64,000 nt of DNA from Gemmatimonadota bacterium. Its GTDB lineage: Bacteria > Gemmatimonadota > Gemmatimonadetes > Gemmatimonadales > GWC2-71-9. The DNA lies in the NCBI GenBank assembly GCA_016874005.1, contig VGVQ01000001.1, positions 310,001-374,000 of the forward strand, written 5' to 3'. A program made the translations under genes and the position numbers. Below, piece by piece: positions 39,933-47,467 of this stretch (the stretch's first letter is position 1; each line of letters opens with the position of its first letter). Under the pieces are notes generated by a model. It worked only from the letters and a program-made list of their open reading frames with translations, had not been told where the DNA came from and ran no database searches.

Positions 39933-41066
39933 CTAATAGCGCGGGATCGACGGATCGATCTCCGCACTCCAGGCCAGAATCCCCCCCTCGAGGTTCTCGA
40001 CCCGCCCGAATCCGGCCTCGAGCAACGCCTCGACCGCCTGGCGGCTTCGTACCCCGCCCTTGCAGTACACCACGACATCGCGATCGGCCGGGATCTCGGC
40101 CAAGCGGCGCGGCAGCGCTCCCAGCGGAATCAACACCGCGCCATCGATTCGCCCAATCGTCCATTCGTGCGGCTCACGGACATCGAGCAGGTACGGATTC
40201 CAGCCCGACCGCCGCCGCTCGGCCAGCGCGGCGACGCTCAGGTCCCGACCCGGCGCGCCCTCGGGCGGCGGTAGCTCGCAGACGGCGTCGATCTCCTCCA
40301 GCGACTGAATGGTCCGGGTCCCGCACGCGGGGCAGCCTGGATCCTTGCGGACTTTCACCCTGCGGAACCGCATCTCGAGGGCATCCACCAGAAGCAGCTC
40401 GCCCACCAGCGGACGACCGATACCGAGCAGGAGCTTGATCGCTTCGGTGGCCTGGATCGTCCCTACCAATCCCGGCAGGACGCCCAGCACGCCGCCCTCG
40501 GCGCAATTGGGCACCGCCCCGGCCGGGGGCGGTTGACGGAAGAGACAGCGGTAACACGGGCCTCCGTCCGCCGCGAACACCGAGGCCTGGCCTTCGAATC
40601 GGTAGATGCTGCCATAGGCGTTCGGAACGCCGAGCAGGACGCAGGCGTCGTTGACGAGATACCGGGTCGCGAAATTGTCGGTTCCGTCGACCACCACGTC
40701 GTAACCCCGAATGATCTCGAGCGCGTTTTGGGCCGATAGACGAGTCTCGTACCGCTCGAACCGGACGTACGGGTTCAGATTCAGGAGCCGCGCCTCGGCC
40801 GATTCCAGCTTGCTGCGACCAATGGTGCTGGTGCCATGGAGAATCTGGCGTTGGAGGTTCGAGGCATCGACCTGGTCGAAGTCCACCAGTCCCAGGTGGC
40901 CGACGCCGGCGGCCGCCAGGTACAGCGCCACTGGCGACCCGAGGCCACCGCAGCCGACGATGAGGACCCGGGATTGTTTGAGGCGCTCCTGCCCGGCCAG
41001 CCCGACCTCGGGCAGGATGATATGGCGGTCGTAGCGAGCCAACTCGGGGCCGGAAAGCAGTGACAT
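39933..41066 (-). CDS. moeB: MoeB/ThiF-type adenylyltransferase with rhodanese domain
   Basis: 377 aa. The E1-like ATP-binding domain shows VLIVGCGGLGSPVALYLAAAG and VVDGTDNFATRYLVND. Zinc Cys pairs are CYRC and CPAC. A C-terminal rhodanese domain (from about residue 285) has the sulfur-carrying Cys in VVYCKGGVRS. It should adenylate the C-terminal Gly-Gly of a sulfur carrier and pass sulfur to it. It follows moaD and thrC; the target pathway may be molybdopterin, thiamine or amino-acid sulfur. Confidence 0.92.
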   Translation of the reverse strand: MSLLSGPELARYDRHIILPEVGLAGQERLKQSRVLIVGCGGLGSPVALYLAAAGVGHLGLVDFDQVDASNLQRQILHGTSTIGRSKLESAEARLLNLNPYVRFERYETRLSAQNALEIIRGYDVVVDGTDNFATRYLVNDACVLLGVPNAYGSIYRFEGQASVFAADGGPCYRCLFRQPPPAGAVPNCAEGGVLGVLPGLVGTIQATEAIKLLLGIGRPLVGELLLVDALEMRFRRVKVRKDPGCPACGTRTIQSLEEIDAVCELPPPEGAPGRDLSVAALAERRRSGWNPYLLDVREPHEWTIGRIDGAVLIPLGALPRRLAEIPADRDVVVYCKGGVRSRQAVEALLEAGFGRVENLEGGILAWSAEIDPSIPRY

Positions 41067-41071
41067 TGGCT

Positions 41072-41347
41072 TCAGCCCCCCGCGATGGCCGACACGATGG
41101 TGACCTCGTCGCCGTCGGCGGCATAGGTCTCGAACCCGCCGCTGAAGCGGGTGTCTTCATCGTTGAGGTATACGGTGACGAATTCGTTGCCGTCCCGGGT
41201 AGCGTCAGCGAGTCGCTTGCCCAGTTCGGGATAGGGTTGGGCCACCCGAGCAAGGACCTCCTCGATCGTGCCGGCGGGCGAGGCGTGGGTTCGCTGTCCA
41301 CCGGCGAAGCGGGCGAGGACCGAGGGGAGGACGACGGTGACGGCCAT
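41072..41347 (-). CDS. MoaD/ThiS-like ubiquitin-fold sulfur carrier
   Basis: 91 aa, beta-grasp fold, ending in Gly-Gly (VSAIAGG), the site of adenylation and thiocarboxylation. EFVTVYLNDEDTRF and ADGDEVTIVSAIAGG are family strands. It lies between thrC and the E1-like gene, five bases from the latter, so the pair is functional. By context it could be a CysO/MoaD-type carrier for cysteine or methionine synthesis as well as for molybdopterin. Confidence 0.9.
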   Translation of the reverse strand: MAVTVVLPSVLARFAGGQRTHASPAGTIEEVLARVAQPYPELGKRLADATRDGNEFVTVYLNDEDTRFSGGFETYAADGDEVTIVSAIAGG

Positions 41348-41368
41348 GAGAAAGCTCCAGACTGAGTG

Positions 41369-42616
41369 TTAGGCGGATTCGATGTGCCGAGCGACCTCGC
41401 TCAGCCGACTCGAGAGAAGGGGTAGCTCGAACGCGTCGAGGGGAACCGCGTCCGGTGTCTTGAGTCCGTGGGCGGTGACGACGAGGACTACCTCGTCGTC
41501 AGGGCGGAACCATCCGGTCTTGGCCAGCGCGAGCGCGGCGGCGCAGGTCACCCCGCCGGCGGTTTCGGCGAAGACCCCGGTGGTTTCGGCGAGGGTCCGA
41601 ATCCCCGCGATCAGATCGGCGTCGGCGACCCGGGCCCCGAAGCCGCCGGACGACCGTATTGCTTCGATCGCTCGGCCGCCGTCGGCCGGAGCCCCGATCG
41701 CCAGTGAGCGGGCAATCGTATTGGGTGTCGTCGGGGTCACCCGGTCTTCGCCGGACTCGAGCGCCCGGACGATCGGGGCGCACCCGGACGCTTGAGCGCC
41801 GAACAGCCGGGGCCGATCGCCTTCGACCAGTCCCGCGTCGATCGCCTCGCCAAACCCCTTGGCGATTTTCGAGATCAGCGAGCCGCCGGCCATCGGCGTG
41901 ACCACCGCGGAGGGCAGCCGCCAGCCCAGCTGCTCGGCGATCTCGAACGCGACCGTTTTCGAGCCTTCCCCGTAGTAGGGCCGCAAGTTGACGTTGACGA
42001 TGCCCCAGGCAAACCGGTCGGCCAGTTGGGCACAGAGCCGGTTGACGTCATCGTATCTGCCGCGAATCCTGACCAGCCGCGCCCCGTGCACCGCGGCCGC
42101 GAGCAGCTTGGCAGGCTCGAGGTCTTCGGGCACCAGCACCCACGCCGGGATCCCCGCCCGCGCCGCGTGGGCCGCCACCGCGATCGCGAGATTCCCCGTC
42201 GAGGCGCACGCCACCGTGCCGAGCCCCAGGCCATGCGCGGCATTGATCGCGGTCGCGACCACCCGATCCTTGAACGAGAGCGTCGGATGAGAGACGGTGT
42301 CGTTCTTGATGAAGGCCCGGGCAACGCCCAGCCGCGTCGCCAAGCGGGGAGCCTCGAGGAGCGGCGTGAACCCAGTGTCGAGCGAGTGGACCGGCTCGCC
42401 ATCGAACGGGAGCCATTCCCGATAACGCCACAGCGACGGCGGTCGCCTGGCGATCTCGGCCTGGGTCGGCAATCGGCGCCCTGGTCGATACACCGGCTCG
42501 AGCGGGCCGAAGCAATCGGGACAGATGGCCGAGGGAAGGGGCTCGTGGAGGCTGGCGCAGTGCCCGCACTTGAGCGGTACCGGCCTAACGGATGAATCGA
42601 TCGCTGCCAGAGTCAC
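41369..42616 (-). CDS. thrC: threonine synthase
   Basis: 415-aa PLP enzyme converting O-phosphohomoserine to threonine. An N-terminal zinc ribbon has Cys17, Cys20, Cys32 and Cys35. The PLP Lys is in LSFKDRVVA, and the phosphate loop is ACASTGNLAIAVAAH. Length fits the zinc-ribbon threonine synthases. GTG 42616 is preferred to GTG 42691. The gene leads a thrC-moaD-moeB set and follows lysJ by about 160 bases. Confidence 0.88.
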   Translation of the reverse strand: MTLAAIDSSVRPVPLKCGHCASLHEPLPSAICPDCFGPLEPVYRPGRRLPTQAEIARRPPSLWRYREWLPFDGEPVHSLDTGFTPLLEAPRLATRLGVARAFIKNDTVSHPTLSFKDRVVATAINAAHGLGLGTVACASTGNLAIAVAAHAARAGIPAWVLVPEDLEPAKLLAAAVHGARLVRIRGRYDDVNRLCAQLADRFAWGIVNVNLRPYYGEGSKTVAFEIAEQLGWRLPSAVVTPMAGGSLISKIAKGFGEAIDAGLVEGDRPRLFGAQASGCAPIVRALESGEDRVTPTTPNTIARSLAIGAPADGGRAIEAIRSSGGFGARVADADLIAGIRTLAETTGVFAETAGGVTCAAALALAKTGWFRPDDEVVLVVTAHGLKTPDAVPLDAFELPLLSSRLSEVARHIESA

Positions 42617-42688
42617 TGCGGTTGTCTCCCGCCCCACCCCGAGCGACTCGTTGGGACCGGAAACGACGAACGCCCGGTGCCAAAGAGA

Positions 42689-42702
42689 CACGCGAGCGCG
42701 TG
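42689..42702 (-). terminator. possible weak terminator between lysJ and thrC
   Basis: CACGCGAGCGCGTG forms a short self-complementary hairpin in the lysJ-thrC gap. On the minus strand it is followed by TCTCTTT; on the plus strand it is followed by a run of five T. It may separate the two operons; the stem is short. Confidence 0.3.
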
Positions 42703-42773: not shown

Positions 42774-43922
42774 CTACCGCTCGTTTCGCGACCGCGCAAG
42801 CCCCCACGCCTCGACGGCCGTGGCCAACTGCTCCGCGGTGACCGACAGTGGAGGCAGGAACCGAACCACATCCGTCCCGGCCGGAATGGCCAGGACGAGC
42901 CGTTCTTGGAGCGCCTTGAGCACTCGGTCACGCGAAGGGCCCACGGCGGCGCCGATCATCAGGCCTCTTCCCCGCACCTCGTCCCCGGACATCGCGGCCA
43001 GCCGGTCGGCGAACCAGGCGCCGAGCACCGCCACTCGGGCGAGCAGGTCGGCTTCGAGTGTCGCCAGGGTAGCGAGCACGGCGGCCGCCACCAGCGGATT
43101 CCCCCCGAACGTCGAGGTATGAAGCCCGTTCGTTAGGCGATCCGCGACGGCCGCACTCATCGCCGCGACCCCGACCGGCAGCCCGCCGGCGAGCCCTTTA
43201 CCCAGGCAGAGCAGGTCGGGCGCGATTCCCTCCCGCTCGGCGACCGTGAAGGTGCCGGTCCGGCCGCAGCCGGTCTGGATTTCGTCGAGGATCACCAACA
43301 CGCCCCGCGCTCGGCAGAGCTCGAGCACGGTGCGCAGGTATCCGGCCGGCGGTACCACCACGCCGCCTTCGCCTTGAATCGGCTCCAGCACCACCGCGGC
43401 CACGCTGTCGTCGATGGCCTCGGCGAGGGCGTCGAGCGAGCCGTAGAGTACGTGGCGAACCGGCAGCAGCATCCGATCGAACAGCGCCCGGTACTTCCCG
43501 GCCTCGGTCAGCGCCAGCGCGCCAATGGTCTTGCCGTGGAACCCACCGGTCGCCGCGATGAAGGTTGGCCGCTGACGGGTAGCCGCCGCGAACTTGATGG
43601 CGGCCTCGATGGCCTCCGCCCCCGAATTGCCCCAGTACAAAGCGGCGCCCTCGGCGAACATCGGGAGGCGGCGCAGCACGGCCGTCGATGCCCGGAGCCG
43701 CACCTCGCTGGTGAAGCTCCCGTGGAGACCGATCAGCGCCCGCGACTGGCTCGCGATCGCCTCGAGAATCGCCGGATTGCCGTGCCCCAGGAGATTCGCG
43801 CCGTAGTTGGTCATCAGATCGAGGTAGCGGGTCCCATCCTTCGCGAAGAGGTAGGCCCCCTCCCCGCGAACGATGCTGAGGCCGCGACTCGGATAGAGAT
43901 CGGCCAGGGGGCCCCTAGCCAT
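42774..43922 (-). CDS. lysJ: LysW-aminoadipate semialdehyde aminotransferase
   Basis: 382-aa class III PLP aminotransferase. LDEIQTGCGRTG and CLGKGLAGGLP (PLP Lys) are present, with THTSTFGGNPL-type phosphate-binding region (LHTSTFGGNPL here). ArgD/LysJ enzymes transaminate N-acetylglutamate or LysW-aminoadipate semialdehyde. Membership in a lysW-led operon makes LysJ the likely role; dual use in arginine synthesis is possible. Its start overlaps the lysZ stop by 8 bp. Last gene of the lysine operon. Confidence 0.88.
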   Translation of the reverse strand: MARGPLADLYPSRGLSIVRGEGAYLFAKDGTRYLDLMTNYGANLLGHGNPAILEAIASQSRALIGLHGSFTSEVRLRASTAVLRRLPMFAEGAALYWGNSGAEAIEAAIKFAAATRQRPTFIAATGGFHGKTIGALALTEAGKYRALFDRMLLPVRHVLYGSLDALAEAIDDSVAAVVLEPIQGEGGVVVPPAGYLRTVLELCRARGVLVILDEIQTGCGRTGTFTVAEREGIAPDLLCLGKGLAGGLPVGVAAMSAAVADRLTNGLHTSTFGGNPLVAAAVLATLATLEADLLARVAVLGAWFADRLAAMSGDEVRGRGLMIGAAVGPSRDRVLKALQERLVLAIPAGTDVVRFLPPLSVTAEQLATAVEAWGLARSRNER

Positions 43923-44724
43923 CGGCGATCACCGTGCCCACCCCGGCGAGGGCGTCAGTCACCGGATGGTCGCGGCGACCGTCCGCCAGCACCACCCAAG
44001 GCGAGGCCCCGCGGAACAACCGGCGCAGGGCGTAGAGCTTCCGCTTGAAGCGCCCCGTCGCCTGGGTCTCGAGGCGCTCCAGCTCGGCCGAGCTGAGATG
44101 GGCGAAGGCCGAATCGGGGCGATCCGGGTCGCGGAGCAGGCCGGCGGCCTCGACCAATTGGACCACCCGAGGGATGTTCATCGCCTCGCGAATCAACGCG
44201 ACGACATCATCGTTTTCCGCGTTGACCGGGTAACCGAGCTCGTCGATCAGCGGCACCGTCAACACGGGTGTGTACCCGGCCGTGAGGAGAAGCTCCAGCA
44301 AGGCCGCGTTGACGCCCGCCGGCTTACCCGAGCGATCGCGAATCAGGATCGTCTTCTCGCCTTGGCGGGTTCGGATCCCGACGTTGCGCCGAGCCGTCAC
44401 CACCCGCCCGTCCAGGCCGGTGAGACCAATGGCGTTGCGCCCGAACCGCTGGAGCGCCGACACCAAGCTGGTGTTGGCCAGCCCAGCGTAGGCCATCGAG
44501 AGGAGATCGATCGCCTCGTCGTCCGAGAAGACGCTGCTGTAGCCGGACACCGAGGTGATCACCCGTTTTTCGACCCCGAGGCGTATCGCCAGGGCGTCGC
44601 GGACCGCGTTGGCTCCTTGCACGACGATCACCGGGTTCGCCAAGGACCCGAGATCCCGGGCCACTCCCAGGAGGTTGATGGATGCGCCGCCGCCGACCTT
44701 GATCAAGATGAGATCGGCGATCAT
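43915..44724 (-). CDS. lysZ: LysW-aminoadipate kinase
   Basis: 269-aa amino-acid kinase fold enzyme. LILIKVGGGASIN and VIVVQGANAVRDALA match the N-acetylglutamate kinase/LysZ pattern, as does VPLIDELGYPVNAENDDVVA. It phosphorylates the side-chain carboxyl of carrier-bound aminoadipate. The frame continues far upstream across the GATase gene, but ATG 44724 overlaps the GATase stop (ATGA) and gives the normal N-terminus. Arg-type activity on other carriers cannot be excluded. Confidence 0.9.
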   Translation of the reverse strand: MIADLILIKVGGGASINLLGVARDLGSLANPVIVVQGANAVRDALAIRLGVEKRVITSVSGYSSVFSDDEAIDLLSMAYAGLANTSLVSALQRFGRNAIGLTGLDGRVVTARRNVGIRTRQGEKTILIRDRSGKPAGVNAALLELLLTAGYTPVLTVPLIDELGYPVNAENDDVVALIREAMNIPRVVQLVEAAGLLRDPDRPDSAFAHLSSAELERLETQATGRFKRKLYALRRLFRGASPWVVLADGRRDHPVTDALAGVGTVIADG

Positions 44725-45401
44725 GGGAGGGCCAGCTCGAGGATGGTTCCGTTGGGGATCGGCTCCCAGCGTGGCGCCGGCGCCATCCGGTGAAGGCCGG
44801 CGGACTCGGCGGGCCACGGCTCCGAGCTGACGATCACCCGATCGTCGACGGTCGCCCGGTGCATCGTGAAGTATTCGTGGTCTACACCGAACCGGGTGAC
44901 CACCCTGAAGATCGCCGAGGAGGCCAGGACCAGGTTCATCGCGCGGAGATATCGCGTCCGTCGGGCGACGACCTCCACCGCCCTGGCCAAGGCGGCGTGA
45001 TCGCGATCGCCCCCGAGTCGGCGGATGAACCGGAAGAGCCGTTCCGCTCCAATCCGCCCGGCGACCGAGAGTCGGACCCCGCGCAACTCGCCGTTGAAGG
45101 CGAACGCCCACCCGCCGTCGCAGAACGGCATGTTGTTCTCGACGGCGATCCCCTCGTTGCCGAAGGCGCTCCGAGCGTGGGCCACGAACCGGCGGGTCGC
45201 CGGTAGTGGAGGCGGAGTGTCCTCCCACAACGGCACGATCGAGTGGTGACAGTCCCATCGGGCCTGGGCGTCGTTCCACCAGGCACAGCCCCACCCGTCT
45301 CCCTGATATTCCTTGCTCCTCTTCGCCACGACCGCCAGGGCGGCGATGGCGTCGGCCGGATCTCGAGGGCTGGCGGAGGCGACGGCGACCAGGCGACACA
45401 T
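44721..45401 (-). CDS. stand-alone class II glutamine amidotransferase in the lysine operon
   Basis: 226-aa Ntn-hydrolase of the YafJ/GATase_4 type with no synthetase domain. The nucleophile is Cys2, and GDGWGCAWW, HARSA and FAFNGEL (oxyanion Asn103-Gly104) are family motifs. Glutamine-pocket residues differ. The usual TDSE segment, whose Asp binds the free alpha-amino group, reads IGAE (117-120). The NTHPF loop reads NNMPF. So the enzyme may act on a Gln whose amino group is in a peptide bond. It lies four bases after lysY and overlaps lysZ. With LysW ending in Gln, deamidation of LysW is the favoured hypothesis. Confidence 0.85.
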   Translation of the reverse strand: MCRLVAVASASPRDPADAIAALAVVAKRSKEYQGDGWGCAWWNDAQARWDCHHSIVPLWEDTPPPLPATRRFVAHARSAFGNEGIAVENNMPFCDGGWAFAFNGELRGVRLSVAGRIGAERLFRFIRRLGGDRDHAALARAVEVVARRTRYLRAMNLVLASSAIFRVVTRFGVDHEYFTMHRATVDDRVIVSSEPWPAESAGLHRMAPAPRWEPIPNGTILELALP

Positions 45402-45405
45402 CGGG

Positions 45406-46446
45406 TTAGATCGGGTGGAGCCCGGGGAAGCCGAGCCCCGTGGTTTCGTCGAAGCCGTGCATCAGATTGAAGGCCTGGACGGCCTGGCCGGCAGCCCCTT
45501 TCATGAGGTTGTCGATCGCGGCGACGACGACGAGTCGGCGACTGTGCGGGTCGCGGTCGAACCCGATGTCGCAGTAGTTGGTTCCGGTGACCAGCTTCGG
45601 TTCCGGCAGCCGGTGGATGCCGTCCCGCGCCTTGACCAGCCGGATGAACGGCTCCGTGCCGTAGGCGGCGCGGTAGGTCCGCCAGATCTCGCGCTCGTCG
45701 AGGTCGTCGCGGAGGAAGGCGTGACAGGTTACCAGGACCCCTCGGACCATTTCCACGGCGGTCGCGGAGAAGTGGATCGAGATCGGCTGGCCGTTCGAAA
45801 GCTCCTGGATCATCTCGCCGACGTGTCGGTGACCGGTCGGCTGGTACGACCGCACGCATCCGGCGCGCTCCGGATGGTGGGTCGCCTCCGAGAATTCGGC
45901 GCCGCCTTCGCTCGAACCGACCTTGGCCTCGACCACGGTGGCCTGGGGCTCCACCAAACCGGCGTCGTAGAGCGGGGCCAGCGCCAGAATGGTGGCGGTG
46001 GCATTGCACCCGGCGCTCGAGACCCAGGTGGCAGACCGCATCGCTTCGCGATGCCGTTCGGGAATCCCGTAGACGAAGCGTCCCAGGAGGTCGGGCCGGG
46101 AGTGTTCTCGGCCGTACCAGCGCGGGTATCCAGCCGGGTCCTCGAGCCGGAAGTCGGCCGAAAGATCGATGAGACGCGGCGCGAGCGCGGCAAAGCGGTC
46201 GATCTGCTCGATGGCCTGGCCGTGCGGCAGGCAAAGGAACAGCACGTCGGCCGGTTCCAGCCGAGCGGCAGAGACGAAATCGAGCTGGCAGACTTTTCGG
46301 AGATTGGGATGGCGGGAGGATACCGGTTTGCCGGCGTGGCGCCCCGAGGTGACTTGGGTCACCCGGACACCGGGATGCTGGAGCAAGAGCCGGGTGAGCT
46401 CCCCACCGGTGTACCCCGAGCCGCCGACGATCCCAACCCGGATCAT
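45406..46446 (-). CDS. lysY: LysW-aminoadipyl-phosphate reductase
   Basis: 346-aa NADPH-dependent semialdehyde dehydrogenase of the ArgC/LysY family. The Rossmann motif is [19 protein letters not shown], the catalytic Cys is in [16 protein letters not shown], and [10 protein letters not shown] contains the conserved His region. It reduces carrier-bound aminoadipyl phosphate. ATG 46446 overlaps the lysX stop (ATGA); the longer frame upstream is not used. Confidence 0.92.
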
Positions 46447-47297
46447 CGGCGGGCCCGGGCCAGGACGTAGTCGGCGATCCGGCCGGGAATGTTGACCCCG
46501 GTGGGCGCGATGCTGTTGCGATACTCCATCGTGTAGTTGATTTCGTTGACGACGAGGCCATCCGGGGTTTCGAAGATGTCCAGCGCCACGACCGCCCCCT
46601 TTGGCCCCCCCACCGCCCGCGCTCCCGCCGCCGCCAAGTGAGCCAGCTCGGGGGTGATTGGGCAGACGCTGGCCCTGCCTCCTCGGGCGGTGTTGGTGAT
46701 CCAGTGCGGGGAGTCGCGATAGATGGCGGCGATGCACTCGTCGCCGATGACGAACGCTCGGATATCGCGGCCGGGTTTATCGACGTATCGCTGGATGTAG
46801 AAGATCGAGTGGTGGTAGCTGCCCAGCACGGTCTTGTGCTCGAGCAGGGCCTCGGCGGCATCGCGGTCGTTGACCTTGGCGAGCAACCGCCCCCAGGACC
46901 CGACGGCCGGCTTGAGCACCACGGGGTAGCCCATGGCTTCGATAGCCACCAGGGCGGACTCCGGGGTGAATGCCACCCTCACCTCGGGCTGCGGCACGCC
47001 ATGCTCCGCCAGCGCCACCGAGGTCATCAGCTTGTCGCCGCAGGTCGCGGCGACGGCGGCGGAGTTCACACAGGGGATCCCTTGGCTCTCGAACAGGCGG
47101 AGGGCGTGAAGGGCCCGCGAGTGGTTGAGGCAGCGTTCGACGATGACGTCGACCTGGGCGGCCGGTTCACCGAGGGTGAACTGGACGGCGCGGTCGTCGA
47201 TCATCTCCACCGTGGCTTTCCGCTGCGCGAACTCCGCGAGCAGGAGCTTCTCCTCGGGGCGAATCAGCGAATGGAGGAACCCCACCCGAACAGTCAC
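46443..47297 (-). CDS. lysX: LysW-aminoadipate ligase
   Basis: 284-aa ATP-grasp ligase of the RimK/LysX family that joins the amino group of alpha-aminoadipate to the C-terminal side-chain carboxyl of LysW. Seen: [27 protein letters not shown] and the late [18 protein letters not shown]. The EYRNS region is of the LysX rather than the glutamate (ArgX) kind, as far as I can judge. GTG 47297 overlaps the lysW stop (GTGA). The ligase needs a free carboxyl, which LysW as encoded (terminal Gln) lacks. Confidence 0.92.
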
Positions 47298-47467
47298 TGA
47301 CCCCAGTCCTCCTCCTCCATCGGGGCTTCCCGAACCACTGGGGGGGCGACCGTGACCACCTCGAGTTCGCTGCCGCATTCGCGGCACCGGACGAGTTCCG
47401 ACGGCATGGCGTCGGGGGTGAGGGGGACGGTCGCGTCACAGACGGGACAGACGGCATTGGCGGACAT
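47294..47467 (-). CDS. lysW: amino-group carrier protein LysW with C-terminal Gln
   Basis: 57-aa acidic carrier protein that protects the amino group during lysine synthesis. A zinc knuckle is formed by Cys7, Cys10, Cys28 and Cys31. The tail reads EEEDWGQ, whereas the usual LysW tail is EDWGE with the final Glu as attachment site. The last codon is CAG directly before TGA, so the change is in the gene and needs one base difference from GAG. First gene of the operon, coupled to lysX. Confidence 0.93.

What the first reader, a model, noticed from the sequence alone, without database searches (positions are those of the whole stretch)
44721..45401. Class II amidotransferase in the lysine operon with a rebuilt glutamine pocket: candidate LysW deamidase
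The GATase keeps Cys2 and the oxyanion Asn103-Gly104 but has no synthetase partner domain. The conserved TDSE segment, whose Asp binds the free alpha-amino group of glutamine, is IGAE, and the NTHPF loop is NNMPF. Losing that Asp is what one would expect if the substrate Gln is in a peptide chain with its amino group blocked, such as the C-terminal Gln of LysW. It is translationally coupled to lysZ. The proposal: this enzyme converts LysW-Gln to LysW-Glu, a maturation step that could be a control point. I cannot tell from here whether this has been described.
Basis: partly seen in the sequence, partly recalled or inferred. Interest (0 to 1): 0.9.

Follow-up and report, generated by a model that had tools for sequence, protein, structure and literature searches.

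The report
Likely replacement for lysine-release enzyme LysK

Summary
The sequence observation is right, but the gene is on the minus strand: a 226-aa stand-alone class II GATase between lysY and lysZ. It keeps Cys2, Arg77 and Asn103-Gly104, has TDSE changed to IGAE and NTHPF to NNMPF, and overlaps lysZ by ATGA. The Gln-tail interpretation fails in its strict form. The same altered GATase sits in 40 sampled loci from three phyla, and 34 of those genomes have an ordinary Glu-tailed LysW. What it tracks is the absence of LysK, the known [LysW]-lysine/ornithine hydrolase. In 200 genomes of the phylum, all 29 with LysW have exactly one of the two: GATase 27, LysK 2. No LysW-less genome has either. 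In closed Melioribacter roseus the operon is lysW-hcs-lysX-lysY-GATase-lysZ-lysJ, with no LysK and no DAP decarboxylase detected. The predicted fold is closest to EgtC, which cuts gamma-glutamyl amides. I propose that the GATase hydrolyses the gamma-glutamyl isopeptide LysW-Lys/Orn, and that the same site can also deamidate Gln-tailed LysW. Gln tails arose three times, all within the GATase clade. This is not proven biochemically, and the GATase/LysK split rests on few evolutionary events. What this operon makes in the window's own genome is unresolved.

The parts
47294..47467 (-). lysW, amino-group carrier protein, 57 aa, C-terminus EEEDWGQ (Gln tail)
   Evidence: TIGR01206 55.9 bits (cut-off 53.2), PF21344 55.6 bits; sequence read
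46443..47297 (-). lysX, ATP-grasp ligase that charges LysW; GTG start overlaps the lysW stop (GTGA)
   Evidence: TIGR02144 328 bits (cut-off 275.6); closest solved chain 3vpd, LysX type with [10 protein letters not shown] motif
45406..46446 (-). lysY (argC-like reductase); ATG overlaps the lysX stop
   Evidence: TIGR01850 393 bits; gap of 4 nt to the GATase start
44721..45401 (-). GATase-like Ntn hydrolase, 226 aa, proposed [LysW]-lysine/ornithine gamma-glutamyl isopeptidase: Cys2 nucleophile, Arg77 for the free alpha-carboxylate, N103-G104 oxyanion hole, Gly118 in place of the alpha-amino-binding Asp
43915..44724 (-). lysZ ([LysW]-aminoadipate/glutamate kinase-like); start overlaps the GATase stop as ATGA
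   Evidence: NF010659 196 bits (below its 223 cut-off); overlap read
42774..43922 (-). lysJ/argD-like aminotransferase; in LysK-type operons lysK follows here, but not in this window
   Evidence: PF00202 299.6 bits; TIGR00707 332 bits

Best explanation
The GATase is a non-homologous replacement of LysK. It is an EgtC-like Ntn hydrolase whose Cys2 attacks the gamma-carbonyl of LysW's C-terminal Glu where that is joined to the alpha-amino group of the finished amino acid (lysine or ornithine), releasing the amino acid and regenerating LysW-Glu. Arg77 would bind the free C-terminal alpha-carboxylate. The Asp that normally binds a free alpha-amino group is gone because in LysW that amine is in a peptide bond. 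The same pocket could hydrolyse the gamma-amide of a genetically encoded C-terminal Gln, so Gln-tailed LysW can be activated to LysW-Glu by the same enzyme. Shown here: operon position, residue changes, predicted fold, strict complementarity with LysK, and absence of LysK from GATase genomes. Inferred: substrate, reaction, and the Gln side activity.
For: (1) Of 200 genomes of the phylum, 29 have LysW with an EDWG(E/Q) tail. 27 of these have the GATase and 2 have LysK; none has both or neither, and 0 of 171 other genomes have either. The two LysK genomes have no GATase, and their lysK follows lysJ in the operon. (2) In three phyla LysK is over cut-off in 13 of 13 LysK-type genomes and 0 of 25 GATase-type genomes, one of which (G555) is GATase-type by clade only. 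(3) The GATase loci from the Bacteroidota/Ignavibacteria group all carry homocitrate synthase inside the operon, so lysine is the expected product there. The closed 3,300,414-bp genome G680 matches Melioribacter roseus (PMC3534657). It has no LysA at E<=1e-20, no M20 hit over 31 bits to the LysK family, and no LysK-like peptidase beside the operon. (4) The predicted fold (pLDDT 90.9) is nearest EgtC, a gamma-glutamyl amide hydrolase: Z 26.3, rmsd 1.9 over 202 residues, against 21.8 for GlmS. (5) Catalytic Cys, Arg and Asn-Gly are kept, and the alpha-amino-binding Asp is replaced. (6) Deinococcus and Streptomyces carrier-protein loci use an M20 hydrolase and have Glu-tailed LysW.
Against: No biochemical evidence. 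GATase and LysK operon types need only two changes on the LysX+LysY tree, so the complementarity reflects few independent events. GATase genomes in the window's own family carry other M20 enzymes, such as the argE-like gene at 104 bits in the window genome, which could in principle release the product. Genome-wide absence of the GATase was tested only for the two LysK genomes of this phylum, not for the Planctomycetota ones. The product of the operon in the window's own genome is unknown.
Confidence: 0.74

Rival explanations
1. One reading: a dedicated maturation enzyme that deamidates the encoded C-terminal Gln of LysW to Glu, with no role in product release.
For: LysW here ends in Gln. All Gln-tailed LysW whose release enzyme could be identified are in GATase genomes: window, L009, L020, L023, L024, L025, and G120. 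Something must make Glu before LysX can charge it.
Against: 34 of 40 GATase loci have Glu-tailed LysW with the same residue changes, where no deamidation is needed. GATase tracks LysK absence, not the tail. Three E-to-Q changes, all within the GATase clade, are too few for significance.
Confidence: 0.08
2. An editing hydrolase that strips wrongly charged or stalled LysW adducts, while an unlinked M20 enzyme does the normal release.
For: Same chemistry and same substrate end. Other M20 enzymes exist in most GATase genomes.
Against: LysK operons would need editing too, yet the two LysK genomes tested lack the GATase entirely. Melioribacter roseus and G716 have almost no LysK-family M20 signal (31 and 22 bits).
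Confidence: 0.09
3. An ordinary glutaminase domain supplying ammonia, or a regulator sensing free glutamine.
For: Class II GATase fold with catalytic Cys, Arg and Asn-Gly intact.
Against: The Asp that holds glutamine's amino group is lost in all loci examined, there is no synthase partner, and no step of this pathway uses ammonia.
Confidence: 0.04
4. A transamidase: the Cys2 acyl-enzyme of LysW-Gln is captured by an incoming amino acid, charging LysW without ATP.
For: Gln-tailed LysW plus an Ntn acyl-enzyme mechanism make this chemically possible.
Against: LysX is retained in the GATase operons, and most have Glu tails.
Confidence: 0.03

Closest known systems
EgtC, ergothioneine-pathway gamma-glutamyl Ntn hydrolase (PDB 4zfj/4zfk/4zfl)
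   Same: Stand-alone class II GATase fold used as a gamma-glutamyl amide hydrolase, N-terminal Cys, best structural match
   Different: 27% identity over the structural alignment; TIGR03442 45 bits against a 218.65 cut-off; EgtC keeps an Asp-Ser in its sequence and its substrate is a small molecule; no egt genes were seen in this operon
LysK, M20 [LysW]-lysine/[LysW]-ornithine hydrolase (TIGR01902)
   Same: Proposed same reaction and same place in the pathway; gene in the same operon type
   Different: Unrelated fold (metallopeptidase against Ntn hydrolase); mutually exclusive in the genomes examined
YafJ and class II GATase domains of GlmS/PurF
   Same: Fold, Cys2, Arg, Asn-Gly
   Different: YafJ and GlmS keep the alpha-amino-binding Asp (TDSE/TDTE) and NTHPF/NAHPH; GlmS and PurF have synthase domains
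LysW-dependent lysine/arginine pathway of Thermus, Deinococcus and archaea
   Same: LysW, X, Y, Z, J set, as in the Deinococcus locus
   Different: Release enzyme replaced, and Gln-tailed LysW in some members

Membership tests
Class II GATase / Ntn GATase_4 (PF13230) | Family profile match and N-terminal catalytic Cys | tested here: met
   PF13230 24.4 bits against 23; Cys2 in all homologues
Class II GATase / Ntn GATase_4 (PF13230) | Asn-Gly oxyanion hole and alpha-carboxylate Arg | tested here: met
   N103-G104 and R77 invariant, aligned with GlmS and YafJ
Class II GATase acting on free glutamine | Asp that binds the alpha-amino group | tested here: not met
   Gly118-Ala119 in place of Asp-Ser/Thr in all homologues; TDSE in YafJ and Ensifer, TDTE in GlmS
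EgtC (TIGR03442) | Score above the equivalog cut-off | tested here: not met
   45.2 bits against 218.65
EgtC-like gamma-glutamyl Ntn hydrolase fold | Structural similarity above other class II GATases | tested here: met
   Z 26.3 against 21.8 for the next family
LysK (TIGR01902, M20) | M20 metallopeptidase homology | tested here: not met
   The GATase matches only GATase_4 in Pfam and only EgtC in NCBIfam
[LysW]-lysine/ornithine hydrolase, as a function | Releases Lys or Orn from LysW | not testable with these tools
   needs an assay; indirect support
LysW carrier (TIGR01206) | Profile match over cut-off and acidic EDWG tail | tested here: met
   55.9 bits against 53.2; tail read
LysW carrier (TIGR01206) | C-terminal Glu | tested here: not met
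   ends in Gln

The most novel reading that the evidence does not exclude
A previously unrecognised Ntn-hydrolase family does both jobs at the carrier protein's C-terminus: it deamidates an encoded Gln to create the attachment site, and after each cycle it cuts the gamma-glutamyl isopeptide to release lysine or ornithine. The carrier's attachment residue is thus made and recycled by one enzyme, and this relaxes selection on Glu so that Gln tails arise repeatedly.
Probability: 0.45. Interest if true: 0.78.

Novelty: new variant of a known kind. Interest (0 to 1): 0.64.

Why it matters
It would fill the missing last step of LysW-dependent lysine/ornithine synthesis in Ignavibacteria, many Gemmatimonadota and some Planctomycetota. 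Pathway annotation that relies on LysK sees a gap there, so these organisms risk being scored as auxotrophs. It would be a non-homologous replacement (metallopeptidase by Ntn hydrolase) acting on a protein-bound substrate, with a simple active-site explanation: loss of one Asp. It also explains why a carrier protein can carry the 'wrong' C-terminal residue. It can be tested directly with small proteins from a cultured bacterium.

Tried and rejected
Gln-tail-specific deamidase: rejected in its strict form because of Glu-tailed GATase operons. Sign test for tail against GATase: only 3 independent pairs, no power. LysX motif as a guide to the product: the window reads [10 protein letters not shown] as in Thermus LysX and the 5k2m chain, unlike Sulfolobus 3vpb, so it does not settle lysine against ornithine. 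Neighbouring genes as a guide to the product in Gemmatimonadota: uninformative. GATase relatives on plasmids: no match. Literature: no held paper has both LysW and glutamine amidotransferase; searches on LysK, class II GATase and the lysine pathway gave nothing on this enzyme. The library holds only openly licensed papers, so prior description elsewhere cannot be excluded.

Full report
What is there. The ORF at 44721-45401 is on the minus strand and codes for 226 aa. It is the fourth gene of a tight run lysW-lysX-lysY-GATase-lysZ-lysJ (47467 down to 42774). The lysW stop and lysX start overlap, lysY and the GATase are 4 nt apart, and the GATase stop overlaps the lysZ start as ATGA. Family scans name LysW, LysX, an ArgC-type reductase, an amino-acid kinase closest to the LysZ models, and an ArgD/LysJ-type aminotransferase. 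The GATase scores just over Pfam GATase_4 and weakly to EgtC.

The residue claims hold. Aligned with E. coli YafJ and GlmS, Cys2, Arg77 and Asn103-Gly104 are kept. YafJ GETDSEKAF is GRIGAERLF here, and NTHPF is NNMPF. In 29 aligned homologues these positions are invariant or nearly so, and in 40 loci the Asp is always replaced. The roles of Arg (alpha-carboxylate) and Asp (alpha-amine) in glutamine binding are taken from established knowledge of GlmS and PurF.

The Gln-tail idea. LysW loci from the same phylum, Planctomycetota and the Bacteroidota/Ignavibacteria group were collected. The GATase occurs with Glu-tailed LysW in 34 of 40 loci and with Gln-tailed LysW in 6. G120 makes a further Gln case whose GATase lies on another contig.

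What it does track. A search for LysK (TIGR01902) in 200 genomes of the phylum found only two over the cut-off, G013 and G198. These are exactly the two LysW operons without a GATase, and lysK follows lysJ in both. A profile of the GATase found it in 27 genomes: the 29 LysW genomes minus those two. G013 and G198 have no GATase anywhere. G160 looked like an exception, but has its GATase elsewhere in the genome. Across three phyla LysK is over cut-off in 13 of 13 LysK-type genomes and 0 of 25 genomes of the GATase clade, of which G555 was not itself confirmed for GATase because its contig ends. Deinococcus and Streptomyces plasmid loci follow the LysK/M20 pattern with Glu tails.

A clean pathway hole. 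The GATase loci from the Bacteroidota/Ignavibacteria group all carry homocitrate synthase between lysW and lysX, and L023 has a separate classical arg operon beside it. There the LysW route should make lysine. G680 is a single contig of 3,300,414 bases, the published size of Melioribacter roseus (PMC3534657). It has no LysA at E<=1e-20, only about 31 bits as its best LysK-family hit, and no LysK-like peptidase next to the operon. The operon-encoded GATase is the obvious release enzyme. Consistently, the published Caldithrix abyssi locus lists LysWXZYJ and Hcs but no LysK (PMC5317091), and another paper calls Ignavibacterium album unable to make lysine (PMC6338057). I did not examine these two genomes.

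Structure. The AlphaFold2 model from the 29-sequence alignment has mean pLDDT 90.9 and pTM 0.89. The best solved relatives are all EgtC (Foldseek E 2e-13; Z 26.3, rmsd 1.9 over 202 residues), clearly above GlmS, PurF and YafJ-type enzymes. EgtC hydrolyses a gamma-glutamyl amide. LysW carries its cargo as exactly such a bond on its C-terminal Glu, whose alpha-carboxylate is free and alpha-amine blocked (AmCP chemistry summarised in PMC9303977). Keeping Arg77 while losing the Asp is what that substrate predicts.

Mechanism proposed. Cys2 attacks the gamma-carbonyl, lysine or ornithine leaves, and water frees LysW-Glu. On Gln-tailed LysW the same steps release ammonia and create the Glu needed by LysX. 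The Gln tail is one base away from Glu (CAG/GAG) and arose three times on the LysX+LysY tree, all within the GATase clade. This fits relaxed selection, but three events are too few to prove it.

Limits. The GATase and LysK states need only two changes on that tree, so counts of genomes overstate independence. Other M20 enzymes exist in many GATase genomes, including one in the window genome's arg cluster. The product in the window's own genome is open: LysA and a classical arg cluster are present, ArgJ is not found, and no homocitrate synthase was found at E<=1e-60. In other Gemmatimonadota an ornithine role is likely: argG and neighbours are present without ArgJ or classical argBCD nearby. 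A LysW-glutamate route to ornithine has been reported for Gaopeijiales of this phylum (PMC11651109).

Verdict.

Noticed in passing
window 39933-42691 (minus strand): Directly downstream of lysJ lie a threonine-synthase-like PLP enzyme, a SAMP1/MoaD-type ubiquitin-like protein and an E1/MoeB-like protein with a rhodanese domain; the set resembles a protein-thiocarboxylate sulfur-transfer module.
   Followed up: no
window genome G000, L110 6463-14065: The genome also has a classical arg cluster (argG and argC/argD/argB/argE-like genes) and LysA, but no homocitrate synthase at E<=1e-60, so the product of its LysW operon is unexplained.
   Followed up: partly
L018:883-2979 (minus strand): One 699-aa ORF joins LysZ-like and LysJ-like domains, an apparent natural fusion in a divergent GATase operon.
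   Followed up: partly
L064, L023, L009, L020, L019, L024, L025: Further LysW proteins ending in DWGQ; three independent Glu-to-Gln changes on the LysX+LysY tree, none in LysK-type operons.
   Followed up: yes
L066 and L006 (genome G160): The GATase gene lies away from lysW-lysX-lysY in this genome (on another contig), showing that linkage is not essential.
   Followed up: partly
L015:6460-7233 (minus strand): This GATase homologue carries a Gly-rich insert of about 40 residues not seen in its relatives.
   Followed up: no
L117 (Thermomicrobium roseum plasmid): A lysX gene without annotated lysY, lysZ or lysJ beside it.
   Followed up: no
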